Shown here in pieces: positions 7,034 through 47,949 of a stretch of 47,949 nt of DNA. Each line of letters opens with the position of its first letter. The stretch's first letter is position 1. A program made the translations under genes and the position numbers. This DNA is from a virus, in IMG/VR virus record IMGVR_UViG_3300027985_000960, positions 1 through 47,949 of that record; one strand, written 5' to 3'. Under the pieces are notes generated by a model. That model did no database searches, was not told where the DNA came from, and was given only the letters and a program-made list of their open reading frames with translations.

Positions 7034-7171
7034 GTTGTTAACGGCCTAGTGTATGAGTAGTGCGGGATTTAACCACACTAAACTTTCAAGCCGATATAAT
7101 GCTCAAATATAAACATTTACGTTCAAAATTTGCACTTTGCCCCGCATTACTTATGACACTTTGTTAGCGTG
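7034..7171 (+). repeat. attC-like element 1
   Basis: Left end TTGTTAACGG; right end GTTAGCGTG at 7163. The arms pair TGTATGAGTAGTGCGGG with CCCGCATTACTTATGACA, with bulges. The loop is about 75 bases. Its right overhang pairs with the left end of element 2. Confidence 0.75.
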
Positions 7172-7182
7172 TCGTTTTTATC

Positions 7183-7734
7183 TTATTTTTTATTATTAAC
7201 CGAGGATTTTATTTTATTTTCTATGTCACCGTGCTTGAAGCTATAATTCTGTTGAAGATATAAGCCCACAATCACAACTAGAATTGCAACAATAAATCCC
7301 CAAAAAAACTTAGATATGAATGCAATAAAAGAACTATATAATTTCCCCCAAATACTTTTTTCATTCGCAATTGGATGGCTATCTGCATTAATATACGTCT
7401 TAATAGTGGAAGTTTTGTCGGTATTGCGGTCAAATGATTGAGTTCCATAATTGTCGCCACCAACATAATTATCAGCATTGATTGTTGTTTGATTCAGGAT
7501 AGTTTTGTTTTCAAGCTCTTTCATTTCTTGATATTTAGCCATTGACCCTGCTTCAATAGTTTTGAAGCCTTTTTCACTGACAGACCAATTATTGGGAGAA
7601 GTCTCCTCAATAAACCCATTTAGTTTGCAATATTCAAACTCTTCTTTTTCAGGATGTTGCTTGTAAGAACTAAATCTTTTGTCTTTATATTTGATCAGAA
7701 AATCTACAATTTTTGAGTCAAATCCTTGATTCAT
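7183..7734 (-). CDS. Tail-anchored membrane protein with winged-helix-like N-terminus
   Basis: 183 residues. Residues 1-65 look like a small helical or winged-helix domain (ending NNWSVSEKGFKTIEAG). A linker with INADNYVGGDNYG follows. One transmembrane segment lies near residues 137-162 (FFWGFIVAILVVIVGLYL), with a short basic tail. With the next gene it is the only minus-strand pair among the called genes, in one cassette. Its start is 15 bases after the stop of the gene at 7750-8238, so they form a two-gene operon. I suspect a membrane-linked defence or exclusion pair, but there is no recognised domain. Confidence 0.7.
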   Translation of the reverse strand: MNQGFDSKIVDFLIKYKDKRFSSYKQHPEKEEFEYCKLNGFIEETSPNNWSVSEKGFKTIEAGSMAKYQEMKELENKTILNQTTINADNYVGGDNYGTQSFDRNTDKTSTIKTYINADSHPIANEKSIWGKLYSSFIAFISKFFWGFIVAILVVIVGLYLQQNYSFKHGDIENKIKSSVNNKK

Positions 7735-7749
7735 AGTTGTTTAAAATTA

Positions 7750-8238
7750 TTAATTACTTAAAATAGAATTATTATGAACTTCAATAATATTTTTAATCTC
7801 GGGCTTATTGTTTGCCTGTCTTTTAATCTCGGTTTTGTTATCGGTCAAATTGTTGGGCTTCTCAGTAAGTTTGGAACTACTGCAACAAATGTTCCCATAA
7901 AAAACACCTGATGTAAATATGAGTCCCACCACCACAGTCAAAATAGACCAAACTAAAGCTGGATTTTGTCTGTCAACCAGTTTCCATATTGAGTTTGGTC
8001 TATATAAGCCAATGCCCTTTATAGTTTGAATACAGTCATTTAGATAAGCTTTGTAGTCAAAGCTTTCATTGTCAAAATACATGCCTGTAATCAACATGTA
8101 TTCATGGGATTCGATGCCGAAGAAATATTCAATGTTTGATTTAATTTTCGCCCTCCAAATTTGATTAGGGGCTGATTTAAAGCTAGAGAACTCACCCATC
8201 CTATCTTGCAGTATTTTAACTGCCTTCTTTTTATTCAT
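7750..8238 (-). CDS. Membrane protein, first gene of a minus-strand pair
   Basis: 162 residues. The N-terminal ~85 residues look helical, with W and FG landmarks (IWRAKIKSNIEYFFGIESHEY). A transmembrane segment lies near residues 94-115 (LVWSILTVVVGLIFTSGVFYG), and then a polar Asn and Lys-rich tail of about 45 residues. I do not recognise the family with certainty. It must be transcribed from the region overlapping attC-like element 2, though no TAnnTTTG was found there on the minus strand. Confidence 0.7.
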   Translation of the reverse strand: MNKKKAVKILQDRMGEFSSFKSAPNQIWRAKIKSNIEYFFGIESHEYMLITGMYFDNESFDYKAYLNDCIQTIKGIGLYRPNSIWKLVDRQNPALVWSILTVVVGLIFTSGVFYGNICCSSSKLTEKPNNLTDNKTEIKRQANNKPEIKNIIEVHNNSILSN

Positions 8239-8284
8239 ATTGTTTATTCAGTATGTCTATAATTATGTTACGCTTTGCTTAATG

Positions 8285-8383
8285 CACGCTAACGGTCAGC
8301 TATATGAAAAGTAGCCTAACCACAAACTTTAAATAAATGAACGGCTGTAACATAGGCTATTTTTTATATAGCGTGTTACCGCC
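8285..8383 (+). repeat. attC-like element 2
   Basis: Left end CACGCTAACG; right end GTTACCGCC at 8375. The arms GCTATATGAAAAGTAGCC and GGCTATTTTTTATATAGC pair almost completely. The loop contains ACAAACTTTAAATAAATG, which resembles the conserved cassette leader. Left end pairs perfectly with the right overhang of element 1. Confidence 0.8.
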
Positions 8384-8416
8384 AGTACGGATTATTAACA
8401 GAAAAACTTAAATAAA

Positions 8417-8716
8417 ATGAGACACGAAAAAATAGTAAAAAGAGAAGATGGTACGCAATACCAAATTTGCGTAAATGCCTACTTAGATTCTTATAGAAAT
8501 GATGCGATGAAATATAGAGTGGATGTTTTTTATAAGCAAAAAGGTAAACGCAAATGGCTTAATGTGGATAAGGAAATTTACGACCATGAATATAGTAGAT
8601 TAAGCATGGATGAACGTAGAGAGTATGATAATAAGAATATTCTCCGATTTGTAACCAAAGAGGAAATTTACGATGCCAAAATTGAACTCTGGGATTTATT
8701 AAAACCGCAAAAGTAG
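8417..8716 (+). CDS. Cassette gene, hypothetical
   Basis: 99 residues, charged, with many Tyr and Asp (YRVDVFYKQKGKRKWLNVD, then LSMDERREYD, then IYDAKIELWDLLKP). I have the impression of a small family seen in phages and cassettes, but cannot name it. It sits between elements 2 and 3, whose facing ends are perfectly complementary, so this 346-base unit is a complete cassette. Confidence 0.65.
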   Translation: MRHEKIVKREDGTQYQICVNAYLDSYRNDAMKYRVDVFYKQKGKRKWLNVDKEIYDHEYSRLSMDERREYDNKNILRFVTKEEIYDAKIELWDLLKPQK

Positions 8717-8720
8717 TATT

Positions 8721-9039
8721 GGCGGTAACGTGCCTGTTGTATATTGTCGGTTGCCATCCAACTACCCACATACTTTGATACGGGGCGCAAATGTTGAATG
8801 TTTAAAATTAGTGAGCTATGAGCAAATGGACTAAAGAAGAGCTGGAAAATATGCTTGAAGATGTGGTTAATGAATTAGAACTAAGTGATAGTGCGGTGGA
8901 AAAACACGGACAATTAGGCACTGCACCTGCTGAATTAGTAAGGTTAGTATTAGATGAAAAAGACCTTAGAATACGTGCGTTGGATGCGAACGTTGTTGAT
9001 GCGAGCAAAAGCAACTGCAATATACAACGTGTTAGCGAT
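8721..9039 (+). repeat. attC-like element 3 with a coding loop
   Basis: Left end GGCGGTAACG at 8721; right end GTTAGCGATG at 9031. The arms TGTTGTATATTG and CAATATACAACG pair over 11-12 bases, extended by GTTGC and GCAAC. The loop is about 240 bases, far beyond usual attC sizes, and contains the start of an ORF at 8818. Confidence 0.65.
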
Positions 9040-9138
9040 GCGGTTTGCCATTACAGGCATTGCTTAGACCAATATAAAGGGAAATGTATAAACGGAACTT
9101 ATTGGCAGAATTGCCATAATAGGCAAACTGAACGCTAA
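8818..9138 (+). CDS. In-loop ORF running into the next cassette
   Basis: 106 residues. The first ~60 look like a helical, acidic protein (MSKWTKEELENMLEDVV). The rest reads through the right arm of element 3 and its GTT (as Val-Ser), then through a short cassette giving a Cys and His-rich tail (CHYRHCLDQYKGKC). The stop codon TAA lies inside the left end of element 4. The natural protein may be the N-terminal part only, with a tail supplied by whichever cassette is next. Confidence 0.5.
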   Translation: MSKWTKEELENMLEDVVNELELSDSAVEKHGQLGTAPAELVRLVLDEKDLRIRALDANVVDASKSNCNIQRVSDAVCHYRHCLDQYKGKCINGTYWQNCHNRQTER

Positions 9139-9203
9139 CGTGATGAATATGTGGCGGCTTGTGTTGCGCCTGCGGCAAGCTGACATATATTTGGTGTTAG
9201 CTG
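9133..9203 (+). repeat. attC-like element 4
   Basis: A compact 71-base element with ends CGCTAACG and GTTAGCTG. The arms ATATGTGGCGGCTTG and CAAGCTGACATAT pair with bulges. TATATTTG in the right arm matches a -7 promoter box, with only a weak -33 (GTTG, 19 bases upstream). Its left end pairs with the overhang of element 3 over 7 bases. Confidence 0.8.
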
Positions 9204-9245
9204 ACTGGTGCGGAAAATTTAGTACAAACTTTAATAAATGAACGA

Positions 9246-10013
9246 ATGATAGTAAAAGAAAAAATAGGGGGGCTTTTTTTAGACCTTAGAATTTGTGACA
9301 ATTTAGATTTGATGGCAGAAATGCAAGACAATACAGTAGATTTAATTTACTGCGATATACTTTACGGTACAGGTAGGAAGTTTAAAGACTACCAAGATTT
9401 AAAACCGATACGAACCGAAATTGAAAGCCACTATATACCACGAATAAAAGAAATGCACCGAATATTGAAGCCAACTGGTAGTATTTATTTGCAAATGGAT
9501 ACAAAAATAAATCATTGGATTAGGTGTATTATGGATGCCATTTTTGGGTATAGCAATATGCGAAATGAAATAGTTTGGCACTATAAAGGAACTGGTGTTT
9601 CAAAAGCATTTGTAAGTAAACACGATATTATTTTGTTATACTCAAAAACAGATATTTTTAATCACAATACCATCTATGTGCCATCAGCGAAAAAGACTGG
9701 ATGGGGAGGGAAAAACGAAAAGAGGTGCGATGATGTTTGGAGTGATATAAATACTATATTTCAATCGAAAGAAAGAGGAACACAAATTTATGATACCCAA
9801 AAACCAAAAGCATTAATTGAGCGAATAATAAAAGCAAGTAGTAACGAAGGTGATTTGGTTGCAGACTTTTATAGTGGGAGTTTTACGACAGCAGAAGTTT
9901 GTAAGGATTTGAAACGAAGTTTTATTGGTTGCGATATAAACCCTAATTGCCTTGAAAAGGCAAAAGCGCGTGGGCTTTTTTCTTTTACGGATGATACACA
10001 GAAAGCTGATTAA
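9246..10013 (+). CDS. DNA methyltransferase, beta-type, divergent motifs
   Basis: 255 residues; a site-specific adenine-N6 or cytosine-N4 methyltransferase with motif IV before motif I. Catalytic motif IV is DLIYCDILYGTG, with DILY in place of the usual DPPY. The SAM-binding motif I, near the C-terminus, is DFYSGSFTTAEVC, with Phe in place of the expected second Gly of the FxGxG core. IVWHYKGTG and QKPKALIERII are family-like. The substitutions may lower activity. The first ~10 and last ~15 residues match those of the methyltransferase at 45775-46536, although the middles differ. It probably methylates phage DNA against host restriction. Confidence 0.8.
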   Translation: MIVKEKIGGLFLDLRICDNLDLMAEMQDNTVDLIYCDILYGTGRKFKDYQDLKPIRTEIESHYIPRIKEMHRILKPTGSIYLQMDTKINHWIRCIMDAIFGYSNMRNEIVWHYKGTGVSKAFVSKHDIILLYSKTDIFNHNTIYVPSAKKTGWGGKNEKRCDDVWSDINTIFQSKERGTQIYDTQKPKALIERIIKASSNEGDLVADFYSGSFTTAEVCKDLKRSFIGCDINPNCLEKAKARGLFSFTDDTQKAD

Positions 10014-10032
10014 GTGAACGAATGTAGCACTT

Positions 10033-10092
10033 GCAGCTAACGGCTCGTGTAAACGGTCGTTTTAATGCCGTTTTACACATTGTTGTGTGTAG
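10033..10092 (+). repeat. attC-like element 5
   Basis: Sixty bases. Ends are GCAGCTAACG and GTTGTGTGTAG. The arms GTGTAAACGG and CCGTTTTACAC pair. The left end is complementary to the overhang GTTAGCTG of element 4 over 8 bases. Confidence 0.8.
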
Positions 10093-10131
10093 TACGGTAA
10101 AATTTAGTAGAAACTTAAAAACAGAGATAAA

Positions 10132-10395
10132 ATGAAAAATTGGATTATTAGAACATTCGGACTTAAAGGCTCTTGGAAATGGGCAAAGAAACAAATGCTT
10201 AATGGTAAAATTGTAAGGTGTAAACATTGGAGTGGTACACTTAAACTACGAATTGATAGCAAGGAAAATAAACTTCTGCAATGCAATTTTACAAGTACAC
10301 CAAAACCAATTCATAAAGGTGATAGATTGTGGGAAACTTCAAACTGGCACATTTCATATGAAGAATTTACAGACTATGAAGTGTTCGAGTGGTAG
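10132..10395 (+). CDS. Cassette gene, possible DUF2829/Tad2-like protein
   Basis: 87 residues. The pattern WKWAKKQMLNGKIVRCKHWSG near the N-terminus, then strands, and a final DYEVFEW recall DUF2829 proteins, whose usual form is FxxALxxMKxGKkVxRxgW with a C-terminal DWxVxE. That family includes Tad2, which sequesters the Thoeris signal molecule. The resemblance is by eye only. It is bounded by elements 5 and 6, whose facing ends match over 10 bases. Confidence 0.45.
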   Translation: MKNWIIRTFGLKGSWKWAKKQMLNGKIVRCKHWSGTLKLRIDSKENKLLQCNFTSTPKPIHKGDRLWETSNWHISYEEFTDYEVFEW

Positions 10396-10397
10396 TA

Positions 10398-10467
10398 TTA
10401 CACACAACGGTGGTAATATGATGCAGCGAAGCGACCCGTAGGGTGCATTATATTACGTGTTATGTAC
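10398..10467 (+). repeat. attC-like element 6
   Basis: Ends TTACACACAACG and GTTATGTAC. The arms GGTAATATGATGCA and TGCATTATATTACG pair, with a GC-rich loop. The two ends of this element do not match each other, but each matches its neighbour's end perfectly. This is strong evidence for cassette-by-cassette assembly. Confidence 0.85.
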
Positions 10468-10525
10468 TGGCACGGTAAATACAGTACAAAGTTGATTAAG
10501 AGTACTAACGTAATAATTTTTAAAA

Positions 10526-11341
10526 ATGAGCGACGGCAAATATGCTTTTGAAAAAAGCAAAATAATACAAGGTGATTGCCTTGAAAAGATGAAACTGATA
10601 CCTGATGGAAGTATTGATATGATACTTGCTGATTTACCTTATGGAACTACTGCTTGCAAGTGGGACACAATAATTCCATTTGAGCCGCTTTGGGAACAAT
10701 ACGAAAGAATAATAAAGCCAAACGGAGCAATAGTATTGACCGCTTCACAGCCTTTTACAAGTGCTTTAATAATGAGTAACCCTAAATTGTTTAGGTATGA
10801 ACTTATTTATGAAAAAACACTTGCCAGTAATTTTGTACATGCAAATTACCAACCTTTAAAATGCCACGAAAACATATTAATATTTTCAAAAAGCGGAGCA
10901 GCTCAAGGAACAAAATCACCAATGAAATACTTTCCGATACATGAAGTTGGAACGCCTTATGATAAAGGTATAAGCAATAAAAAGAGAGAAGGTTTAGCAA
11001 ACGGGATGAATGGGGCGGTTTTAATAAATAAAAATGGTGATAGAAAACCGAGAAGTGTAATGAAATTTTCAAATGCTGACAGGAGAAATATATTACATCC
11101 AACTCAAAAACCAGTAGCTTTGTTTGAATACTTAATTAAGACCTACACCAATGAGGGTGATGTAGTGATTGACAATGTTGCAGGAAGCGGAACAACGGCA
11201 GAGGCTTGCATAAACCTAAACAGAGACTTTATACTAATTGAAAAAGAACCTAATTATTACGAAGTAATAATAGAGAGGGTGGGAAAAATTTTTAAAGATT
11301 ATGGACTTGACCTACAACCTTTATTAGATGAACGGATGTAG
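10526..11341 (+). CDS. DNA methyltransferase, beta-type
   Basis: 271 residues. It begins with IIQGDCLEKMKLIPDGSIDMILADLPYGTT, containing catalytic DLPY near residue 37. It ends with the SAM-binding motif DNVAGSGTTAEAC and ERVGKIF. HPTQKPVALFEYLIKTYTNEGD is a hallmark of phage and restriction-type N4/N6 methyltransferases. No restriction endonuclease is beside it, so it is an orphan enzyme that likely protects phage DNA. It is bounded by elements 6 and 7. Confidence 0.85.
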   Translation: MSDGKYAFEKSKIIQGDCLEKMKLIPDGSIDMILADLPYGTTACKWDTIIPFEPLWEQYERIIKPNGAIVLTASQPFTSALIMSNPKLFRYELIYEKTLASNFVHANYQPLKCHENILIFSKSGAAQGTKSPMKYFPIHEVGTPYDKGISNKKREGLANGMNGAVLINKNGDRKPRSVMKFSNADRRNILHPTQKPVALFEYLIKTYTNEGDVVIDNVAGSGTTAEACINLNRDFILIEKEPNYYEVIIERVGKIFKDYGLDLQPLLDERM

Positions 11342-11346
11342 TGCTT

Positions 11347-11480
11347 GTACATAACGTTGAGTATATAATTTCGGTGGCGATTGATTGCAGAACTTTTCGC
11401 ATACCGACAAACTTACAAGACTGCACAGTGGTTTAATTAGACCTTATAACGCCACTGAATTATATACATTGTTATAGGGC
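11347..11480 (+). repeat. attC-like element 7
   Basis: Ends GTACATAACG and GTTATAGGGC. The arms GTATATAATTTCGGTGGCG and CGCCACTGAATTATATAC pair. The loop is about 75 bases. Its left end pairs over 9 bases with the overhang of element 6. Its right end is identical to that of element G in array 2. Confidence 0.85.
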
Positions 11481-11489
11481 GTTTTTATT

Positions 11490-11648
11490 ATGTGTTGTGA
11501 ACCAAGTGGATATAGAGAAGATGAAATAAATGGCGAGTGCCCAGTATGTGGTGAGCCAACAGTTGACGGTGATGCCTACGAAAAATGTGGTTATTCGCCA
11601 GTAGAATGTGAAGAGTGCGGATGGGCACCTTGCGACCAAAGTTGCTAA
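11490..11648 (+). CDS. Small cysteine-rich zinc-ribbon-like cassette protein
   Basis: 52 residues, with 10 Cys. It starts MCCEPSGYRED, has CPVCGEP, then CGYSPVECEECGW, and ends CDQSC. The pairs CxxC and CxxxxxxxCxxC suggest two small zinc-binding knuckles. It starts 10 bases after the overhang of element 7 and stops 2 bases before the left end of element 8, so it fills its cassette exactly. The function is not known; it may bind nucleic acid or protein. Confidence 0.65.
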   Translation: MCCEPSGYREDEINGECPVCGEPTVDGDAYEKCGYSPVECEECGWAPCDQSC

Positions 11649-11650
11649 AT

Positions 11651-11677
11651 GCCCTATAACTAAAGTATATAACAACC
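11651..11677 (+). repeat. attC-like element 8, truncated
   Basis: The left end GCCCTATAACT at 11651-11661 pairs perfectly over 10 bases with the overhang of element 7. A left arm (AAGTATATAACAACC) follows. No right arm or GTT end is found before the next gene, so the array ends in a half element. A 22-residue ORF (11697-11765) lies after it and contains the inverted repeat CAACTCTCAA / TTGAGAGTTG at 11716-11751; I doubt it is a gene. Confidence 0.6.
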
Positions 11678-12812: not shown

Positions 12813-12886
12813 ATAGATGTTATGCAGAGGCTATACAACGTTACCTTGGACGTAACGGTTCGTTGGTTCGAATCCAACCATCTATA
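12813..12886 (+). tRNA. tRNA-Pro (anticodon TGG), D arm irregular
   Basis: The acceptor stem ATAGATG / CATCTAT is perfect. The anticodon stem is GTTAC / GTAAC with loop CTTGGAC, giving anticodon TGG. The T arm GTTGG-TTCGAAT-CCAAC is canonical. The D arm is poor: TATG / TATA around CAGAGGC gives only a weak stem. CCA is not encoded. The gene may be functional with a weak D arm or may be decaying. Confidence 0.6.
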
Positions 12887-12909
12887 CAAATATTAATCAG
12901 AGCGAAATT

Positions 12910-14216: not shown

Positions 14217-14523
14217 AAAACAACTTAAAGAGCTACTTAACACAAACGGCCAGTTGAAGGAGGGAGACATATTCTTGATTGATGAGTTTTACCACAACAT
14301 GAAGATGATGAAAGACGCTAAGACTCACATTAATGATAAGGGGATTTTGGCTCAAGGTGACAAAGATGGAAAAATCTTCTATCAATCACCAGCGATAAAG
14401 ATATATAACGACTCATTCAGTAATCTGTTGAAAATATCCCAAAAACTTGGCTTGTCCCCTTATGATAGGGGGAAAATTTTAGCTGAAGTAAAGGGGACTG
14501 TTGATGATGGGTTTGACGACTAA
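14206..14523 (+). CDS. Terminase small subunit, P27 family
   Basis: 105 residues from the ATG at 14206; GTG at 14197 is an alternative. The pattern matches P27-type small terminases: a helix with FLIDEFYHNMKMMKDA, THINDKG, then AIKIYNDSFSNLLKISQKLGLSPYDRGKIL. This subunit recognises phage DNA and delivers it to the large subunit, whose gene overlaps it by 20 bases. Confidence 0.85.
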   Translation: MISKKQLKELLNTNGQLKEGDIFLIDEFYHNMKMMKDAKTHINDKGILAQGDKDGKIFYQSPAIKIYNDSFSNLLKISQKLGLSPYDRGKILAEVKGTVDDGFDD

Positions 14524-17305
14524 TGCAGAGAATAGAAAAAAGCAAAAAGAAGCCTATATAGATGCTCAGATTGAAAAAGCAAAGCAGTATGAGCAAGATG
14601 TTCTTTCAGGCAAAAAAATAGCCTCACAATGGATAAAAAAAGCCGTTGTTCGCAGAGAGAGGTTAGCAGATAAGTATTTTTTTAGCGAAGATAAAGCCAG
14701 AGAAGCATTTGGCTTTTTCTATTATGTGAAAATAGTAATAGGGGCTAAGCCTGAAAGATTTGTGCCATTAGATTGGATGGCATGGATAACATACAACATC
14801 TATGGTTTGTATAGGGACGAGACTTGTAGAAAAAAACTGTTTCGTTTTTCAAATATATGGGTAGCCAGGAAGAGCGCGAAAGCACTAAGTCTTGATACAA
14901 GAATACCAACTCCATCAGGATGGACTACTATGGGTGAAATATCTGTAGGAGATGAGATTTTTTCAGTAGATGGAAGCGTCACTAGAGTGACAGGGGTGTC
15001 AGAAATCTCATATCACAGGAAGTTGTATGAGGTTGAGTTTGAGGATGGAGAGAAAATAAAAGCTTGCGAAGATCACTTGTGGGAGGTGGAGACTAGAGAT
15101 TCTAGAAGAAGGGTTAGAGGAAAAAAAGACCCATCTGTTGATTTTGAGAGTGGCTACTTTAAGGATGGGTTTGTTTTGACAACAAAAGACATGCTTCATG
15201 ATGTGTATAGAGATAGGGCTGATGAAAAAGGGCGAGAATATAAATATCGAGTTCCTGTTGCAAAGCCTTTAGAGTTGCCTGAAAAAGACTTACCTGTTGA
15301 CCCCTATCTGCTTGGATGTTGGTTGGGTGGTGGAGATAGTAGTTGTGCTAGAATATCATCTAGTGTTGACGATATTGATATGTATAAGTTTTTAGAAAAT
15401 GATGGTAGGTATAGCGTTTCTTACAGTAGAGACAAGAGAAACAAGTCAATACACATCAACATATCAACAAAAGAGACTTGCTTTAAGAGCGAATTGAGAG
15501 ACTTGGGTCTACTGAACAACAAGCACATTCCAAAAGATTATTTGAGAGCAAGTAGGGAGCAGAGGTTAGCTTTACTTCAAGGGCTTATGGATACAGATGG
15601 AACGGTTTCATTGAATGGAAAATGTGTTTTTACTCAAAAATCAGCCTCAGTTTCTCATGGGGTAAGTGAGTTACTTTCGTCTTTGGGAATAAAACATTCA
15701 ATTAAGATGAAGGAAGGGAAGATTGGAGATGTTAGCTATGGTAATTTTTTTTACATCTTATTCTTTACTGACAAAACACTTCCTTGTTTTAGGTTAGAAA
15801 GAAAATTTAATAGACTTAAAGATAGACTTAGTTCTAGAATGAAGAATAAGTCTATTGTTTCAATAAAAGAGATACCAGTTGAGCCAATGCGCTGCATATC
15901 TGTTGATCATGAAAGCAAGTTGTATTTGTCGGGCGATAGGATGACAGCCACTCATAATACAACATACGCCTCAGTATTAGCACTTTATGCATTAACAAAA
16001 GGGGAATATGATGCAGAGGTTTACTTCTGTGCAACAACAAAAGATCAAGCATCTCAAGCACTAAGGTATCTTAAGTCAATGGTTGGTGTGTCTCCTGCAT
16101 TAAATAAGAGAGTTAAGCGTCAACAATATAGGCTTAAGTATGAGTCTGACGAAAGAGGCTCTTGTATTGCAAGACCAGTTGCAAATGAGCCTGATACACT
16201 AGATGGGTTAAAGCCATCTTTTGCGATTGTTGATGAGAAGCACGCATTGCCAGACAACGACCTGTTTAATATCATGAAAACAGGTATGCTTGCATGTGAA
16301 GATCCGCAAATTGTAACAATATCCACAGCAGGGTTTAATAGAGATTACCCTTTCTATAAGGAACTTGAATTGGGCAAGAAAGTTCTTGATGAAGAGTTGG
16401 ATGACGATAGCACATTCTATGCATTTTATACATTAGATGATGAGAGTGAGATAGGTGATCCAGAAATGTGGATTAAGTCAAATCCCTCTCTAAAAGACGA
16501 GAATGGTATAGGTACAATGTGGTTGGATGATTTGGTTGTAGATTACAAGAAGGCTTGTATGACACTTGTAGACAAAAATAACTTTATCACAAAGAACTTG
16601 AATGTCTATACAGATTCAGTTGATTCATGGATACCAGACGCAGCATACAAGAAGTGCTTCAATGAGGTTGATGTGGAGTCATTGAGAGGATGTGATGCAT
16701 ATATGGGTATTGACTTGTCGAGAACACGAGATTTAGCTTCACTTGTGGTTGTGGTTAAAGATCCAGAGACAGGTAGAATGAAGGTGATACCAGAGTTCTT
16801 TTTTCCAACTGAAGCAGGGGAGAATAAGATAAGGGAATCTGGGATTGACTTGACTGAGTGGATTGATGCAGGGTGGATACAGCCCCATTACGGCAATATT
16901 ATAGATTACAATGAGGTGTTTGAAAGAATCAAATATTATTCAGAGTATTTTAATCTAATCTCATGTGGTTATGATAGTTGGTTTGCTGCTCAACTAATAG
17001 CTATGGTTGAGTCAGAGATTATGCTTGATATGATACCATTGAAGCAGAATACAGGAACGTTTACGTTTCCTATGAAGTATTTTGAGAGACTTGTTTTTAG
17101 TGAAGATATAGATTGTTCAAAGAGTCCTGTTTTAAGGTGGAATATAAGAAATTGTGTTCCATATTATGGGGGCAATGATGATTGTAAGTTGATGAAAAAT
17201 AAATCACTTGATTCAATTGATGGTGCAGTTGCATTGCTTATGGCATTAGCCGTTTACGCTAATGACAACTTTGATGCATTAAATATGATAATGAACGGTG
17301 AATAA
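14504..17305 (+). CDS. terL: Terminase large subunit interrupted by an intein
   Basis: 933 residues from the ATG at 14504; TTG 14501 and ATG 14507 are possible. It belongs to the Terminase_1 family. Removing a 359-residue intein leaves about 574 residues, the usual family length, and rebuilds Walker A as ARKSAKTTYASV. Walker B is FAIVDEKHAL. The nuclease half starts at DAYMGIDLSRTRDLASLVVV, where D of GIDLS is a likely metal ligand. The enzyme pumps DNA into proheads with ATP and cuts the concatemer. Activity must depend on splicing, because the intein splits the ATP-binding loop. Confidence 0.9.
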   Translation: MMGLTTNAENRKKQKEAYIDAQIEKAKQYEQDVLSGKKIASQWIKKAVVRRERLADKYFFSEDKAREAFGFFYYVKIVIGAKPERFVPLDWMAWITYNIYGLYRDETCRKKLFRFSNIWVARKSAKALSLDTRIPTPSGWTTMGEISVGDEIFSVDGSVTRVTGVSEISYHRKLYEVEFEDGEKIKACEDHLWEVETRDSRRRVRGKKDPSVDFESGYFKDGFVLTTKDMLHDVYRDRADEKGREYKYRVPVAKPLELPEKDLPVDPYLLGCWLGGGDSSCARISSSVDDIDMYKFLENDGRYSVSYSRDKRNKSIHINISTKETCFKSELRDLGLLNNKHIPKDYLRASREQRLALLQGLMDTDGTVSLNGKCVFTQKSASVSHGVSELLSSLGIKHSIKMKEGKIGDVSYGNFFYILFFTDKTLPCFRLERKFNRLKDRLSSRMKNKSIVSIKEIPVEPMRCISVDHESKLYLSGDRMTATHNTTYASVLALYALTKGEYDAEVYFCATTKDQASQALRYLKSMVGVSPALNKRVKRQQYRLKYESDERGSCIARPVANEPDTLDGLKPSFAIVDEKHALPDNDLFNIMKTGMLACEDPQIVTISTAGFNRDYPFYKELELGKKVLDEELDDDSTFYAFYTLDDESEIGDPEMWIKSNPSLKDENGIGTMWLDDLVVDYKKACMTLVDKNNFITKNLNVYTDSVDSWIPDAAYKKCFNEVDVESLRGCDAYMGIDLSRTRDLASLVVVVKDPETGRMKVIPEFFFPTEAGENKIRESGIDLTEWIDAGWIQPHYGNIIDYNEVFERIKYYSEYFNLISCGYDSWFAAQLIAMVESEIMLDMIPLKQNTGTFTFPMKYFERLVFSEDIDCSKSPVLRWNIRNCVPYYGGNDDCKLMKNKSLDSIDGAVALLMALAVYANDNFDALNMIMNGE
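14882..15958 (+). other. Intein with LAGLIDADG endonuclease in Walker A of the terminase
   Basis: 359 residues. It begins ALSLDTRIPTPSGW, so residue 1 is Ala rather than Cys or Ser. Block B has DHLW. It ends SVDHESKLYLSGDRMTATHN with His-Asn, followed by extein Thr. The endonuclease has LLGCWLGGGDSS (first LAGLIDADG-type helix) and LLQGLMDTDGTVS (second). In the first helix Gly replaces the usual catalytic Asp (LGDG). The intein may therefore still splice but may not home. Confidence 0.85.
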
Positions 17306-43415: not shown

Positions 43416-43545
43416 CACCCTAACGTTCTGAATATGAAACGGTGGGATTTTACGCACCGACTTTGAAAATAATTACAAATGTAACTTAAATAGACTGGGC
43501 TAATTAGACACCCTGACACCCACTGTTTTATGTTTATTGTTAGGC
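43416..43545 (+). repeat. attC-like element A
   Basis: Left end CACCCTAACG; right end GTTAGGC at 43539. The arms AATATGAAACGGTGGG and CCCACTGTTTTATGTTTATT pair. The left end does not match its own right end but matches the overhang of element E (GTTAGGGTG). Positions 43420-43544 are repeated at 46583-46707 with one mismatch. Confidence 0.85.
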
Positions 43546-43589
43546 TTTCGTACTTTTTTAAAACAAATTTTAATCAATAATATAAAACA

Positions 43590-43940
43590 ATGGAAACTTT
43601 AAAAATTGAATTATCAGTTAAAGATTTAACTGAAATGGTAAAAGAAAATGTCGGAAATGCAGTTGCAAAATCGCTAAATGCTAATAAAGAACAAATTGAA
43701 AAATCAATTGACCAATATTTTAAAAAGTCAATTTATGACAACAAAGCATCTCAATTTGAAAATGCTTTAGATTGGGCTGTTGAAAATTCATTTAGGCATG
43801 GATTAGAACAAGCAATGACAGAGTTAAATTTTAAAGAATTAATAGCTCAAAAAGCTAAAGAAATTCTATCGGACAATAATTTTATTAAAGAATTGGCTGA
43901 AAAGAAAGTGCGGTCATCTCTTGGACTGCCGTCTCTTTAG
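43590..43940 (+). CDS. Cassette gene, hypothetical
   Basis: 116 residues, helical and Lys and Asn-rich (IELSVKDLTEMVKENVGNAVAKSL, then KASQFENALDWAVENSFRHGL). No domain is recognised. It lies between elements A and B, whose facing ends match over 9 bases, so it forms a complete cassette. Confidence 0.65.
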   Translation: METLKIELSVKDLTEMVKENVGNAVAKSLNANKEQIEKSIDQYFKKSIYDNKASQFENALDWAVENSFRHGLEQAMTELNFKELIAQKAKEILSDNNFIKELAEKKVRSSLGLPSL

Positions 43941-43944
43941 TATG

Positions 43945-44254
43945 AAGCCTAACGGCTTGTAATATGAAAATTTAAAAATACGGATTATGAAACACTACAG
44001 ATGCGGATATTGCGGAACACCAACAAATGAACAAGGCGACACTTTGAGCCTTGGCGAATGTAACAAACTAACAGAAGAGCAACTTAATAATGCCGAACTT
44101 GTACACGGCTATTGTTGCTACGAGGAACAGCAAGAAAGATTTCTAACAGTAACTAGAGATATGGCAACCGATGCTGGCGACTCCTCACTTGAAGGCGAGC
44201 GGTGGCGGTGGTAGGATGCTAGTATTTTTATTTTTTATATTACGTGTTACCACC
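43945..44254 (+). repeat. attC-like element B with a coding loop
   Basis: Left end AAGCCTAACG; right end GTTACCACC at 44246. The arms GTAATATGAAAATTTAAA and TTTATTTTTTATATTAC pair, as do AAATAC and GTATTT. The loop contains a complete 75-residue ORF (43987-44214), so the loop is about 240 bases. Confidence 0.7.
43987..44214 (+). CDS. In-loop cysteine-rich small protein
   Basis: 75 residues, starting MKHYRCGYCGTPTNEQGDTL, with a CxxC pair and two later Cys (GYCCYEEQQERF). A zinc-binding mini-protein is plausible. The leader TACGGATT before the ATG resembles the cassette leader. The ORF ends before the right arm of element B. The function is not known. Confidence 0.55.
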   Translation: MKHYRCGYCGTPTNEQGDTLSLGECNKLTEEQLNNAELVHGYCCYEEQQERFLTVTRDMATDAGDSSLEGERWRW

Positions 44255-44291
44255 AGTACGGCTTAATTATTAACAACTTAAATAAATTGAA

Positions 44292-44660
44292 ATGATAAAA
44301 ATTAACGCAGCAAAAGAGATACGAGAAAAGTTTGATTTTACCCACGTAGTAATATTAGGTATTGATAGCGAGGGTGGGCAGCACGTAGCAACCCACGGAC
44401 TAAGTAAACAAAACACCACCGACACCCAAATGGGTTATGATACGGTGTTAGCACCCGTTATTTTAGAAGAACTTAACGATGCTGAATTGCTTGAAATAGT
44501 AAATGACTTGCAAGGAGAAACGATTGCAGAAAGTAGTACAGTAAGGCAACTTGCAAAACAATATTTTGGTGGTGATTCGTTAACACAAATGATGTTTGTT
44601 GCACTAAAAGTATTACCGATTGTCGCAGAACGAATGAGATGTTATAGTCCGCACCTATAA
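44292..44660 (+). CDS. Cassette gene, hypothetical
   Basis: 122 residues, acidic, with a regular helix-strand pattern (FDFTHVVILGIDSEGGQHVATHGLSKQN). No family is recognised with certainty. It ends 2 bases before the left end of element C. Confidence 0.65.
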   Translation: MIKINAAKEIREKFDFTHVVILGIDSEGGQHVATHGLSKQNTTDTQMGYDTVLAPVILEELNDAELLEIVNDLQGETIAESSTVRQLAKQYFGGDSLTQMMFVALKVLPIVAERMRCYSPHL

Positions 44661-44662
44661 TG

Positions 44663-44795
44663 GGTGCTAACGTAAATAATAAATACAGTAACGACATGAA
44701 TATTATAGAAAAGATTATTAAAAAGTACGATGTACAAGCTATGCACAATGATAACTTTAGAAAAGAGTTATTGGATTTATTTAGTGTTAGCAACC
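44663..44795 (+). repeat. attC-like element C with coding loop
   Basis: Left end GGTGCTAACG; right end GTTAGCAACC at 44786. The arms GTAAATAATAAATACAGTAAC and GTTATTGGATTTATTTA pair loosely. An ORF at 44696 lies in the loop. Its left end matches the overhang of element B with one mismatch. Confidence 0.65.
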
Positions 44796-44809
44796 GTATT
44801 TTTAACTAA
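44696..44809 (+). CDS. In-loop mini-ORF crossing the recombination point
   Basis: 37 residues (MNIIEKIIKKYDVQAMHND at the start, then FRKELLDLFSVSNRIFN). The right arm is translated, and the GTT AGC of the right end is read as Val-Ser. It is short but resembles helical cassette peptides. Whether it is expressed is unknown. Confidence 0.4.
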   Translation: MNIIEKIIKKYDVQAMHNDNFRKELLDLFSVSNRIFN

Positions 44810-44823
44810 AACAGAATATACAA

Positions 44824-45546
44824 ATGAAATATATGGGAAATAAGAATCGGATAGCAAAAGAAATATTGCCGATTATACTTAAAGACAGAAAAGAAAACCA
44901 AACTTATGTTGAGCCGTTTTGTGGTGGATTAGGAACTATGGACAAGGTCATCGGCAATAGGATTGCAAATGATAAAAATAAATACTTGATAGCGATGTGG
45001 CGAGGGCTTCAAGAAAATCGTGAACGACCTTACCAAATAAGTAAAGATCTTTACTCTAAAGCAAGAACAGAGTATAACAACGGAACTAACATTGATTTTG
45101 ACGATTTCTTGATTGGATGGATTGGGTGGATGGGAAGCTATAACGGAAGATTTTTTGATGGTGGTTATTCTGGACATTGTGTAGGAAAAACAAAACGTGA
45201 TTATATAAGTGAGCAAATAAGGAACACAGAAAAACAGACTAACAAGATACAGGGGATTGATTTTAGAAGTTGTGATTATAGTGAATTTGAAATACCAAAT
45301 GAAAGTATAATTTATTGCGACATACCATACAAGGACACAAAGCAGTATGCAACTTCTAAAGGTTTTGACCACGTTTCGTTTTGGGATTGGTGCAGAGATA
45401 TGACAAAGCGAGGGCATCAAGTATTTATTTCTGAATACCAAGCACCTGACGATTTCATTTGCGTATGGCAAAAAGAAGTAACAAACTCAATGAATACAAC
45501 TAAAACTTATAAGCCTATGGAGAAGTTGTTTGTATATGGTGGGTAA
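44824..45546 (+). CDS. Dam-like DNA adenine methylase (D12 class)
   Basis: 240 residues. The N-terminus KYMGNKNRIAKEILP matches the SAM-binding K-G-K type opening, followed by motif I YVEPFCGGLGTMDKV. Motif IV is IIYCDIPYKDTKQY, with DIPY in place of DPPY. The enzyme methylates adenine N6. The stop codon TAA overlaps the left end of element D. It is an orphan methylase likely used against host restriction. Confidence 0.85.
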   Translation: MKYMGNKNRIAKEILPIILKDRKENQTYVEPFCGGLGTMDKVIGNRIANDKNKYLIAMWRGLQENRERPYQISKDLYSKARTEYNNGTNIDFDDFLIGWIGWMGSYNGRFFDGGYSGHCVGKTKRDYISEQIRNTEKQTNKIQGIDFRSCDYSEFEIPNESIIYCDIPYKDTKQYATSKGFDHVSFWDWCRDMTKRGHQVFISEYQAPDDFICVWQKEVTNSMNTTKTYKPMEKLFVYGG

Positions 45547-45732
45547 CGTAAATAATAAACACTGATTTTTAACGGATTAATAACGGATGAACATAGAAGA
45601 ACTAAGAAAACAGTACTTAACAGAGGTTGATGGTAGCAGCTACCTTGACTACACAGGTGTAAAAAGCGAGCAATACATACAATGGCTAGAACAACAGTTA
45701 GTAAAATTATTTGCTATACCTGTTGTTAGCTG
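45538..45732 (+). repeat. attC-like element D with coding loop
   Basis: Left end GGTGGGTAACG; right end GTTAGCTG at 45725. Arms are weaker than elsewhere; the best pairing is AAATAAT with ATTATTT. The loop contains a mini-ORF. The left end matches element C's overhang in 8 of 10 bases. Confidence 0.5.
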
Positions 45733-45733
45733 A
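45587..45733 (+). CDS. In-loop mini-ORF
   Basis: 48 residues (MNIEELRKQYLTEVDGSSYL at the start, then EQYIQWLEQQLVKLFAIP), ending Val-Val-Ser where the last GTT AGC belongs to the right end and TGA comes from the next cassette. The leader CACTGATTTTTAACGGATTAA is shared with the in-loop ORF of element F, which supports it as a real unit. Confidence 0.5.
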   Translation: MNIEELRKQYLTEVDGSSYLDYTGVKSEQYIQWLEQQLVKLFAIPVVS

Positions 45734-45774
45734 CTGGTGCGGAAAATTTAGTACAAACTTTAATAAAAGAACAA

Positions 45775-46536
45775 ATGATAGTAAAAGAAAAAATAGGGGA
45801 GCAATTTTTTGAATTAATACAAGGAGATTGTAATTTAATTGAAAATATACCGTGTTATGATTATATAATTAGCGATTTACCATATAATACTAATTATGCA
45901 AGTTGGGACAAAGGGGTTAAAGCTAATGAGGTATTTAATTTTAAAGCAAAAGGATATTTATTGTTTTGTGTACAACCTTTAACAACCGAACTGATTACCT
46001 CAAATATAAAACAATATAAGTACGATTTGGTATGGTGCAAGAATACATATAAGAGTAATTCATTTAAAACAAGAGTTGGTAGGCAACATGAAACAATACT
46101 TATATTTGGAGATTTACCTTATAACGCACAGCTTTTAAAAAGAACAGAAAAAGAAATGCAACGACTAAATTATGAACAGCGAAAAAAATATGAATATAAA
46201 AACCCAGGTAGTGTATTATTTTTTGATGCCATAAACAATCGCAATGGAAGCAGGACAGGACACCCAGCTGAAAAACCAGTAGCATTAATGGAGTGGTTGA
46301 TAAAAACTTATACAAATGAAGGCGATGTTATTTTTGACCCTTATATGGGTAGCGGAAGCACGGGTGTAGCTTGTAAAAATACCAACCGCAATTTTATTGG
46401 CATTGAAAAAGACGATAACTATTTTAATATAGCAGTAAGCCGAATTAGAGGAACTGAACCAAAACCCCAATTGGCTGATAAGCCAAAAGCGGGCGGGCTT
46501 TTTTCTTTTACGGATGAACCCACAAAGGCTGATTAA
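45775..46536 (+). CDS. DNA methyltransferase, beta-type
   Basis: 253 residues. Motif IV is IISDLPYNTNYASW, and the SAM motif is FDPYMGSGSTGVACKNTNR near the C-terminus, so motif IV precedes motif I. HPAEKPVALMEWLIKTYTNEGD is the conserved linker. Its leader, first ~10 residues, last ~15 residues and following 40 bases match those of the methyltransferase at 9246-10013, but the middle differs. It probably methylates phage DNA. Confidence 0.85.
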   Translation: MIVKEKIGEQFFELIQGDCNLIENIPCYDYIISDLPYNTNYASWDKGVKANEVFNFKAKGYLLFCVQPLTTELITSNIKQYKYDLVWCKNTYKSNSFKTRVGRQHETILIFGDLPYNAQLLKRTEKEMQRLNYEQRKKYEYKNPGSVLFFDAINNRNGSRTGHPAEKPVALMEWLIKTYTNEGDVIFDPYMGSGSTGVACKNTNRNFIGIEKDDNYFNIAVSRIRGTEPKPQLADKPKAGGLFSFTDEPTKAD

Positions 46537-46542
46537 AAGAGC

Positions 46543-46588
46543 GAATGTAGCACTTGCAGCTAACGGAATGTAGCACTTGCAGCTAACG
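46543..46588 (+). repeat. 23-base perfect tandem duplication
   Basis: The 23 bases at 46543-46565, ending GCAGCTAACG, recur without change at 46566-46588. Element E therefore has two candidate left ends. The same 23-base string occurs once at 10020-10042, before element 5. Confidence 0.9.
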
Positions 46589-46711
46589 TTCTGAATATGA
46601 AACGGTGGGATTTTACGCACCGACTTTGAAAATAATTACAAATGTAACTTAAATAGACTGGGCTAATTAGACACCCTGACACCCACTGTTTTATATTTAT
46701 TGTTAGGGTGC
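46556..46711 (+). repeat. attC-like element E
   Basis: Left end GCAGCTAACG (46556 or 46579); right end GTTAGGGTGC at 46702. The body is the same as element A. Its left end matches element D's overhang over 8 bases, and its right end matches the left ends of both F and A. Confidence 0.85.
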
Positions 46712-46721
46712 GTTAATTATT

Positions 46722-47045
46722 ATGCTTTACCGAAAATTGAAACGAACTTGGACGCACGGATATATCAATTATATGCCGAACTTCAAAAAGGCTTTTCCAG
46801 AACTTAACCAAGTAAGTAGTGAGGAAATGGCAGACCGATTTATTGAACTTGGATTAGATTACTTTACCGAAACAAAAACACCTGTTAAATGGTGGATTAG
46901 ATTTACTCTGCCATTTGCGTTATTGACAATGGTACTAATGTTTATAGGATTACCGATAGCCTTTTTGATTACAGGGCAATGGGGGTATGCTTTAGGTGAT
47001 AACAACTTTTTATACAACTGGCTTAAACAGCTTAGATTGTACTAA
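46722..47045 (+). CDS. Cassette gene, membrane protein
   Basis: 107 residues. After a helical N-terminus (SSEEMADRFIELGLDYFTET) a long hydrophobic region (residues about 65-92, FTLPFALLTMVLMFIGLPIAFLITG) may span the membrane once or twice. The ends of its cassette match over 10 bases. The function is unknown; membrane cargo could affect superinfection. Confidence 0.6.
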   Translation: MLYRKLKRTWTHGYINYMPNFKKAFPELNQVSSEEMADRFIELGLDYFTETKTPVKWWIRFTLPFALLTMVLMFIGLPIAFLITGQWGYALGDNNFLYNWLKQLRLY

Positions 47046-47046
47046 T

Positions 47047-47258
47047 GCACCCTAACGTTGAATGTATGCACTGATTTTTAACCGATTAAAAACACGAAAG
47101 ATGATAACGAAAGAAACAATAATGGAAGCATATTTATTTATGCGCAAAGAAAGCCAAAGCGTACCTAGCGAAACACTAGAGTTTATGAAAGATACCGCCC
47201 TTGCTGAATTGCAGAAATGTAAGGTTAAAAATTTGGGTATACATGGTGTTAGCAAGCC
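47047..47258 (+). repeat. attC-like element F with coding loop
   Basis: Left end GCACCCTAACG; right end GTTAGCAAGCC at 47248. The arms ATGTATGC and ATACAT, then ATTTTTAACC and GGTTAAAAATT, pair. The loop encodes most of an ORF that reads across the right end. Confidence 0.7.
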
Positions 47259-47361
47259 AAAGGGTACGTTTGTGCCTGACGATGTAAAGCTACCAAAAGA
47301 ACCAAGACCGATAAGTGTAAATACCCAAAGCGGTAAGCCAGTTACATTCAGGCACAAATGA
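47101..47361 (+). CDS. In-loop ORF fused to the next mini-cassette
   Basis: 86 residues from the ATG at 47101; the upstream in-frame ATG at 47062 lies in the left arm and is rejected. The first ~40 residues are helical (ETIMEAYLFMRKESQSVPSE). The arm and the GTT AGC are read as Gly-Val-Ser, and the tail (KPKGTFVPDDVKLPKEPRP) comes from a cassette of only about 110 bases. The tail would change if that cassette were exchanged. Confidence 0.5.
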   Translation: MITKETIMEAYLFMRKESQSVPSETLEFMKDTALAELQKCKVKNLGIHGVSKPKGTFVPDDVKLPKEPRPISVNTQSGKPVTFRHK

Positions 47362-47493
47362 TTGCTAACGTTTAGTATATGGCAAGGCAGGATTAAAAGC
47401 TGCAACCTACCGAACCAATAAAAAGTTAATTAGTAGCACAAAAATAGCAATACAGAACACGCCCCTGCTTTGCTATATACATTGTTATAGGGC
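47362..47493 (+). repeat. attC-like element G
   Basis: Left end TTGCTAACG; right end GTTATAGGGC at 47484. The arms TAGTATATGGCAAGGCAGG and CCTGCTTTGCTATATA pair well. The left end matches element F's overhang over 8 bases. Confidence 0.8.
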
Positions 47494-47503
47494 GTTTTTC
47501 TTT

Positions 47504-47707
47504 ATGATTATGATTTACGTATATGAGATTAATATAATGGATGCTGAAACTTACAAAGTAGCACATACCACCAGAAGTGAGGGTAAAAACCAAAAGGAAG
47601 CGGTTAAGAACTTTAGAAAGGAACAACCAGAGCTAAGAGCTAAATACATAGACAAAGGTGGTTTTTGCATTGGTTTGAAAAGAATATGCAAAGCTCCATT
47701 TCAGTAG
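47504..47707 (+). CDS. Cassette gene, hypothetical
   Basis: 67 residues. It looks like a small alpha-beta protein (YVYEINIMDAETYKVAHTT, EGKNQKEAVKNFRKEQPEL). The overhang and leader (GTTATAGGGCGTTTTT) match those of the zinc-ribbon cassette at 11471, yet the gene is different. It ends 9 bases before element H. Confidence 0.6.
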   Translation: MIMIYVYEINIMDAETYKVAHTTRSEGKNQKEAVKNFRKEQPELRAKYIDKGGFCIGLKRICKAPFQ

Positions 47708-47716
47708 GGATTAAAT

Positions 47717-47819
47717 GCCCTATAACGGATTGTGGTATGAAATCGAAACCGACAACACCGCAGCCCGAACAATGAGACTAAGCAAACAGAGGTTTTGTTT
47801 TATACCACTTGTTACCAAC
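47717..47819 (+). repeat. attC-like element H
   Basis: Left end GCCCTATAACG; right end GTTACCAACTGG at 47811. The arms GGTATGAAATCGAAACC and GGTTTTGTTTTATACC pair well. The left end matches G's overhang over 10 bases. Confidence 0.8.
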
Positions 47820-47878
47820 TGGCGGTTATCACGAACCTTGATTAAATGAACAGAAGTAATAATTAAATATTTTTAGCG

Positions 47879-47949
47879 ATGGGAATTGAAATAATTAATG
47901 ACACAAAAAAAGTAAAGGCAAGAAAAGCCCATGTATGTAACTGGTGTGG
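47879..47949 (+). CDS. Partial cassette gene, cut by the window end
   Basis: Only the first 23 residues are seen (MGIEIINDTKKV, then KARKAHVCNWCG). The Arg-Lys-x-His-x-Cys-x-x-Cys opening resembles small zinc-finger-like proteins common in phages. It begins about 60 bases after element H. The remainder lies outside the window. Confidence 0.5.
   Translation, partial: MGIEIINDTKKVKARKAHVCNWC

What the first reader, a model, noticed from the sequence alone, without database searches (positions are those of the whole stretch)
7163..11660. Integron-like cassette array 1 inside a phage genome
Seven complete attC-like inverted repeats plus one half element separate eight small accessory genes between the replication and packaging modules. 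Each has a left end NNNTAACG, imperfect arms and a right end GTT plus overhang. Complete integron-style cassette arrays within tailed-phage genomes are not something I know as described, so this is the prime candidate for a new mobile system.
Basis: partly seen in the sequence, partly recalled or inferred. Interest (0 to 1): 0.95.

Follow-up and report, generated by a model that had tools for sequence, protein, structure and literature searches.

The report
Phage gene-cassette arrays with own integrase
This phage carries rows of small genes separated by DNA hairpins, the window version without an integrase of its own; in related phages a dedicated, non-classical integrase sits at the end of the same kind of row, and cultured sister phages differ from each other only by whole gene cassettes gained or lost exactly at these hairpins.

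Summary
In detail: seven complete hairpin sites and one half site lie at 7040-11660, plus a second array at 43422-47949 that runs off the contig. The hairpins exceed chance (14 sites, 0.14 expected), show compensatory base changes, and each cassette's own two ends are mutually complementary. The array is integron-type. Cassette arrays without integrase were already reported in phages (Qi et al. 2023, including Polaribacter phage P12002L). What I did not find described is the machinery. In related phages a 266-aa tyrosine recombinase sits at the end of the same array behind a conserved attI-like half site (42 of 44 loci). It lacks the IntI-specific domain and falls outside the IntI clade. Flavobacteriaceae chromosomes carry a sister system with the same site class. 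Phage cassettes are inverted: genes point at the integrase and the hairpin is their 5' leader. Seven cultured Freya phages (three backbones compared: 99.998-100% identical) carry arrays A, AB, ABC, ABCD, ABEF, ABCE and ABCEF, each break at AAC|. So cassettes move as single units. The window itself has no integrase and only a diverged attI-like end: mobilised in trans, vestigial, or integrase beyond the contig end.

The parts
7040..7165 (+). attC-like hairpin s1 (first site of array 1; its left AAC belongs to the flanking phage DNA)
   Evidence: hairpin score 16.0; covariance model 58 bits
7163..8293 (-). cassette c1: two ORFs on the minus strand (7183-7734, 7750-8238), a minority orientation
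   Evidence: own ends complementary; ORFs; no Pfam match
8291..8377 (+). attC-like hairpin s2
   Evidence: score 18.6; circle-form bottom-strand fold z -4.4
8375..8729 (+). cassette c2 (ORF 8417-8716)
   Evidence: own ends GTTACCGCCAGTAC / GTATTGGCGGTAAC
8727..9033 (+). attC-like hairpin s3 with a 300-nt loop holding the start of ORF 8818-9138
   Evidence: score 15.8
9031..9139 (+). mini-cassette c3 (3' part of ORF 8818-9138)
   Evidence: own ends complementary
9137..9198 (+). attC-like hairpin s4
   Evidence: score 13.2
9196..10041 (+). cassette c4: N6/N4 DNA methyltransferase, ORF 9246-10013
   Evidence: PF01555 E 6e-46; homology to L004 begins at 9194
10039..10084 (+). attC-like hairpin s5
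   Evidence: score 11.2
10082..10408 (+). cassette c5 (ORF 10132-10395)
   Evidence: own ends GTTGTGTGTAGTAC / GTATTACACACAAC
10406..10461 (+). attC-like hairpin s6
   Evidence: score 12.1; fold z -4.0
10459..11355 (+). cassette c6: N6/N4 DNA methyltransferase, ORF 10526-11341
   Evidence: PF01555 E 5e-31; own ends complementary
11353..11473 (+). attC-like hairpin s7
   Evidence: score 15.5
11471..11660 (+). cassette c7 (ORF 11490-11648), last of array 1
   Evidence: own ends GTTATAGGGCGTTT / AAATGCCCTATAAC
11658..11676 (+). diverged attI-like half site AACTAAAGTATATAAC: where relatives have AACTATNATATAT followed by the integrase; no integrase follows here
   Evidence: 2 mismatches to AACTATNATATAT; relatives; no PF00589 in window
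43422..43541 (+). array 2 hairpin t1
   Evidence: score 14.9
43539..43953 (+). cassette d1 (ORF 43590-43940)
   Evidence: own ends complementary
43951..44248 (+). hairpin t2, 293-nt loop holding ORF 43987-44214
   Evidence: score 16.0
44246..44671 (+). cassette region d2/d2b (ORF 44292-44660; inner GTT at 44447 pairs with AAC at 44671)
44669..44788 (+). hairpin t3
   Evidence: score 12.1
44786..45547 (+). cassette d3: D12-class adenine methyltransferase, ORF 44824-45546
   Evidence: PF02086 E 7e-16; 74% DNA match 44785-45548 to L002 with ends exactly at T|GTT and AAC|G
45545..45725 (+). weak site t4
   Evidence: score 7.2, below threshold
45725..46564 (+). cassette d4: N6/N4 methyltransferase, ORF 45775-46536
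   Evidence: PF01555; homology to L003 and L004 ends exactly at 46564
46585..46704 (+). hairpin t5, nearly identical to t1
   Evidence: score 15.7; alignment A1
46702..47056 (+). cassette d5 (ORF 46722-47045)
   Evidence: own ends complementary
47054..47250 (+). hairpin t6, loop holds start of ORF 47062-47361
   Evidence: score 15.3
47248..47369 (+). mini-cassette d6
   Evidence: own ends match 5 nt beyond GTT
47367..47486 (+). hairpin t7
   Evidence: score 15.4
47484..47726 (+). cassette d7 (ORF 47504-47707)
   Evidence: own ends complementary
47724..47813 (+). hairpin t8; the next cassette runs off the contig end
   Evidence: score 15.0

Best explanation
An integron-type cassette array moved by a phage tyrosine recombinase that is not IntI. 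In reading direction each mobile unit is [hairpin + following gene]. A unit leaves or enters at the AAC|G point at the left end of the hairpin, and in the free circle its own two ends pair to complete a long recombination hairpin. The integrase gene, when present, lies at the right end of the array behind an attI-like half site (AAC-TATNATATAT in most phages, AAC-ACCCCTATAAC in Freya), and new cassettes enter there. Shown: the structure, the link with the integrase, single-unit gain and loss at AAC|. Inferred: single-strand recombination, circular intermediates, catalysis by this integrase, and in-trans mobilisation or decay of the window's own array, which has no integrase on the contig.
For: Hairpins far above chance with compensatory changes in all 10 pairs. 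Own-end complementarity. Hairpin within 1.7 kb upstream of the integrase in 42 of 44 loci against 0.7% background, and attI-like motif in 44 of 51. L086-L089: identical integrase, identity breaks at TAAC|TAT, and once at the left end of a hairpin. Seven Freya isolates differ by whole units at AAC|; the backbones compared, Freya_1, 6 and 10, are 99.998-100% identical. Window cassettes d3, d4 and c4 occur singly in other phages with matching ends. Integrase clade separate from IntI and without the IntI domain.
Against: The window contig has no integrase, and its attI-like end has two mismatches in a motif that occurs often by chance. Recombination was not tested. Several integrase loci are near-duplicates, so counts are not all independent. 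Predicted folding of circle forms is weak for the long-loop sites of the window. Qi et al. report that IntI1 can use a P12002L site, so a host IntI could also act.
Confidence: 0.9

Rival explanations
1. Ordinary CALIN: cassettes captured from bacterial integrons and mobilised only by a host-encoded canonical IntI.
For: Canonical IntI over the family cut-off occurs in 84 of 297 genomes sampled from the phylum of a Flavobacteriaceae (Lacinutrix) genome. Qi et al. 2023 (PMC9892861) report that IntI1 recombines a P12002L attC.
Against: In related phages the same site class is tied to a non-IntI integrase. Phage cassettes are inverted (196:6) relative to Flavobacteriaceae chromosomal cassettes of the same site class (2:50) and to the Vibrio control. 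The own-end pattern with fixed mismatch is absent from the Vibrio control.
Confidence: 0.07
2. The hairpins are transcription terminators or RNA elements, and cassette differences come from homologous recombination between repeats.
For: Covarying hairpins between genes; some hairpins are near-identical repeats (t1 and t5).
Against: Own-end complementarity across whole cassettes, a specific integrase at the array end, exact breaks at AAC| in otherwise identical phages, and loops holding start codons in 67 of 250 sites.
Confidence: 0.02
3. The integrase next to the arrays is an ordinary lysogeny integrase that happens to be adjacent.
For: Bartlau et al. 2021 (PMC8776804) read the integrase of Freya, Leef and Ingeline as a sign of a temperate life style.
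Against: Adjacency holds in 42 of 44 loci and across 35-70% identical integrases; the closest chromosomal clade is also next to arrays of the same site class; cassette changes in Freya abut the integrase.
Confidence: 0.06

Closest known systems
Canonical integron (IntI, attI, attC cassettes; class 1, Vibrio)
   Same: Tandem cassettes, AAC/GTT hairpin sites, attI-like site beside the integrase, single-cassette gain and loss
   Different: Integrase lacks the IntI-specific domain and lies outside the IntI clade; genes are inverted relative to the site; paired own ends are longer, with a fixed mismatch at position 8
Phage CALINs of Qi et al. 2023 (PMC9892861), e.g. Polaribacter phage P12002L
   Same: Clusters of attC-like sites with methyltransferase genes in a flavophage; P12002L has three hairpins of this class (L028)
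   Different: They report arrays without integrase in virulent phages; here a related non-IntI integrase and attI-like site are found in other phages, and isolates with cassette differences
Flavobacteriaceae chromosomal arrays with a ~380-aa recombinase (L138-L147)
   Same: Same hairpin class, same own-end pattern with fixed mismatch, related integrase clade
   Different: Genes in canonical orientation (50:2); integrase transcribed toward the array. I found no description of these in the papers searched
Treponema integrons (PMC3607928)
   Same: Atypical integrase orientation relative to the cassettes
   Different: Described there as integron integrases (IntI); not compared here by tree

Membership tests
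Canonical integron | IntI integrase with the IntI-specific additional domain | tested here: not met
   Window has no PF00589 protein; integrases of related phages lack the ~43-aa insertion, score 139-143 bits against a TIGR02249 cut-off of 265, and fall outside the IntI clade
Canonical integron | attC sites with AAC/GTT ends that fold into a hairpin | tested here: met
Canonical integron | attI site next to the integrase, where cassettes enter | tested here: met
   In relatives: conserved half site before the integrase, junctions there. In the window only a diverged half site
Canonical integron | Cassettes gained and lost as single units at the sites | tested here: met
   (in relatives and isolates, not in the window phage itself)
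Canonical integron | Cassette genes run away from the integrase, site at their 3' end | tested here: not met
   196 of 202 phage cassettes have the gene in the opposite orientation
Canonical integron | Bottom-strand single-stranded recombination | not testable with these tools
   needs an experiment
CALIN (attC cluster without integrase) | At least two attC sites and no integrase gene | tested here: met
   14 sites, no PF00589 in the window; but the contig is linear and array 2 is cut by its end
CALIN (attC cluster without integrase) | Sites recognised by the IntegronFinder or HattCI attC models | not tested
   those models were not available; a covariance model built from these sites themselves was used

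The most novel reading that the evidence does not exclude
A second class of integron, built on a tyrosine recombinase clade without the IntI domain, exists in Flavobacteriaceae chromosomes and in a phage-dedicated form in which cassettes are inverted so that the recombination hairpin serves as the 5' leader of each gene; phages use it to swap counter-defence and other accessory genes in nature.
Probability: 0.6. Interest if true: 0.93.

Novelty: new variant of a known kind. Interest (0 to 1): 0.87.

Why it matters
Integrons are known as platforms of bacteria moved by IntI. Here related phages carry their own cassette-capture machine with a different integrase, and cultured isolates of one phage species that differ in cassettes make it directly testable. 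It would explain how flavophages exchange methyltransferases and other small accessory genes, would change the reading of some phage integrases taken as lysogeny genes, and would let one ask what an integrase needs to use hairpin sites, since the IntI-specific domain is absent.

Tried and rejected
Rfam: no family for these hairpins. Integrase in the window: none. Relatives of the window phage by primase, portal and structural protein: none useful (portal hits about 24% identity on contigs of 5-26 kb). The idea that the hairpin belongs to the gene on its left: rejected, because exchange breaks fall at the left end of the hairpin and 67 ORFs cross the right end against 8 the left. The idea that the long own-end complementarity is unique to phages: rejected, the Flavobacteriaceae chromosomal arrays share it. 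Canonical IntI as the linked enzyme: not supported by the short stretches around the IntI genes examined nor by the tree. Terminase model phrog_2 matched only 6 of 17 integrase-bearing contigs, so their phage nature rests on IMG/VR and on the isolated phages. Papers: the nine searches found no description of this integrase class with arrays; preprints and most subscription journals are not held.

Full report
What is in the window. The window is a linear virus record of 47,949 bases with tailed-phage genes: terminase, portal, head protease, tape measure. Between the replication genes and the packaging genes, at 7040-11660, seven complete inverted repeats and one half repeat separate small accessory genes. 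A second array of the same kind fills 43422-47949 and is cut by the contig end. A scan for AACG, paired arms and TGTT finds 14 sites scoring 11 or more in the two arrays, against 0.14 on average in 100 dinucleotide shuffles, and one lone site elsewhere. The cargo includes four DNA methyltransferase genes; most other cassette proteins matched no Pfam family. No tyrosine recombinase is encoded in the window.

Anatomy. In an alignment of 78 sites from 19 sources all ten predicted pairs have compensatory changes. Each cassette's start (GTT and what follows) is complementary to its own end (what precedes AAC): in the window 5.7 nt beyond GTT against 1.6 for other combinations, not reached in 100,000 permutations. 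Over 218-221 phage cassettes the match runs over positions 1-7, fails at position 8 (7%), and resumes at 9-12. Two ends of one cassette meet only in a free circle, so this is the mark of an excised cassette whose joined ends complete a long hairpin (inference). Folding of circle forms with DNA parameters gives mean z of -5.4 and -4.0 for the two strands over 40 sites, but several long-loop sites of the window do not fold better than shuffles.

The integrase. A relative of the window's array, L002, has a 266-aa tyrosine recombinase directly after the last half site, and L004 likewise. A viral scan with that protein gave 44 loci, most of them with hairpins on the same strand upstream and almost none downstream. 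A second scan with the L004 protein gave 8 loci, two of which, L215 and L217, repeat contigs already held (L004 and L074), so six were new; the hairpin positions in these are. With the two sets pooled and those two repeats left out, 42 of 44 loci having at least 600 nt upstream have a hairpin within 1.7 kb upstream (background 0.7%), and 44 of 51 have an attI-like motif within 130 nt upstream (background 6%). Some of these loci are near-copies of each other. Isolated phages Leef_1, Freya_1 and Ingeline_1 have hairpins upstream of their annotated integrase. Whole-contig searches with the covariance model hit 15 of 15 integrase-bearing records, mostly in one or two clusters.

Which enzyme it is. 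The phage proteins score 139-143 bits on the integron integrase model, cut-off 265, while Vibrio IntIA scores 494. The alignment shows that the IntI-specific insertion is missing and the catalytic residues are kept. In the tree the 22 IntI form one clade (100/100), and the phage array integrases with the Flavobacteriaceae chromosomal ones form another (92/78). The root is not settled, so I do not claim an independent origin. Flavobacteriaceae chromosomes carry arrays of the same hairpin class next to these recombinases with the same own-end pattern.

Orientation. Read on the reverse strand the sites have the canonical form AACA...CGTT. Phage genes run against that direction in 196 of 202 cassettes; in Flavobacteriaceae chromosomes 50 of 52 run with it, and in the Vibrio control 7 of 8. 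In 67 of 250 phage sites an ORF starts inside the loop and crosses the right end; 8 cross the left end. So the mobile unit is hairpin plus following gene.

Exchange. L086-L089 share an identical integrase region, and identity to the left stops at TAAC|TATCATATATC with three different cassettes; L086 and L088 agree through one whole cassette and part at the left end of its hairpin. Window cassettes occur singly elsewhere: d3 matches L002 from T|GTT to AAC|G at 74%, and d4 matches L003 and L004 ending at its AAC. The strongest case is the isolated Polaribacter phage Freya. Freya_1 and Freya_10 are 100.000% identical over 42,600 nt of backbone, and Freya_6 and Freya_10 99.998% over 42,500 nt; the backbones of Freya_2, 5, 8 and 9 were not compared, and Freya_3, 4 and 7 were not fetched. 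The arrays of seven isolates are A (Freya_1), AB (2), ABC (5), ABCD (6), ABEF (8), ABCE (9) and ABCEF (10), with every break at AAC and the 700 nt to the right of the attI-like site identical in all seven. The source paper takes the integrase as a sign of a temperate life style and does not mention integrons or cassettes (PMC8776804).

Prior work. Phage CALINs, among them Polaribacter P12002L with methyltransferases, were reported in 2023 with recombination assays using IntI1 (PMC9892861). IntegronFinder identifies IntI by two profiles, one for the IntI-specific domain (PMC9668308), so the enzyme found here would probably not be called. I found no description of this class in nine paper searches.

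Limits. No recombination was tested. For the window itself the state of the system (in trans, decayed, or integrase beyond the contig end) is open.

Noticed in passing
window 14501-17305: The terminase large subunit ORF (934 aa) looks interrupted by an intein-like insert (KSAKA|LSLDTRIPT...HN|TTYAS), judged by eye from the translation and from the split family matches.
   Followed up: no
window 12813-12887: tRNA-Pro (TGG) gene just right of array 1.
   Followed up: no
window 46543-46587: A 21-bp tandem copy of the end of cassette d4 (GAATGTAGCACTTGCAGCTAACG), possibly a trace of recombination.
   Followed up: no
window 9196-10041 and 45725-46564: Two methyltransferase cassettes share nearly the same start and end but differ in the middle.
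   Followed up: partly
L229 and L230 (Polaribacter phages Danklef_1 and Danklef_5): Array with five hairpins beside an ORF annotated integrase of only 132 nt, apparently a broken integrase: a possible model for arrays left without an enzyme.
   Followed up: partly
L138-L147: Flavobacteriaceae chromosomes carry long arrays of the same hairpin class next to a ~380-aa recombinase; I found no description of them.
   Followed up: partly
G540, G541, G542, G545, G551 (contigs behind L074, L077, L078, L091, L106): Several integrase-bearing phages have a second array elsewhere on the same strand, like the two arrays of the window.
   Followed up: no
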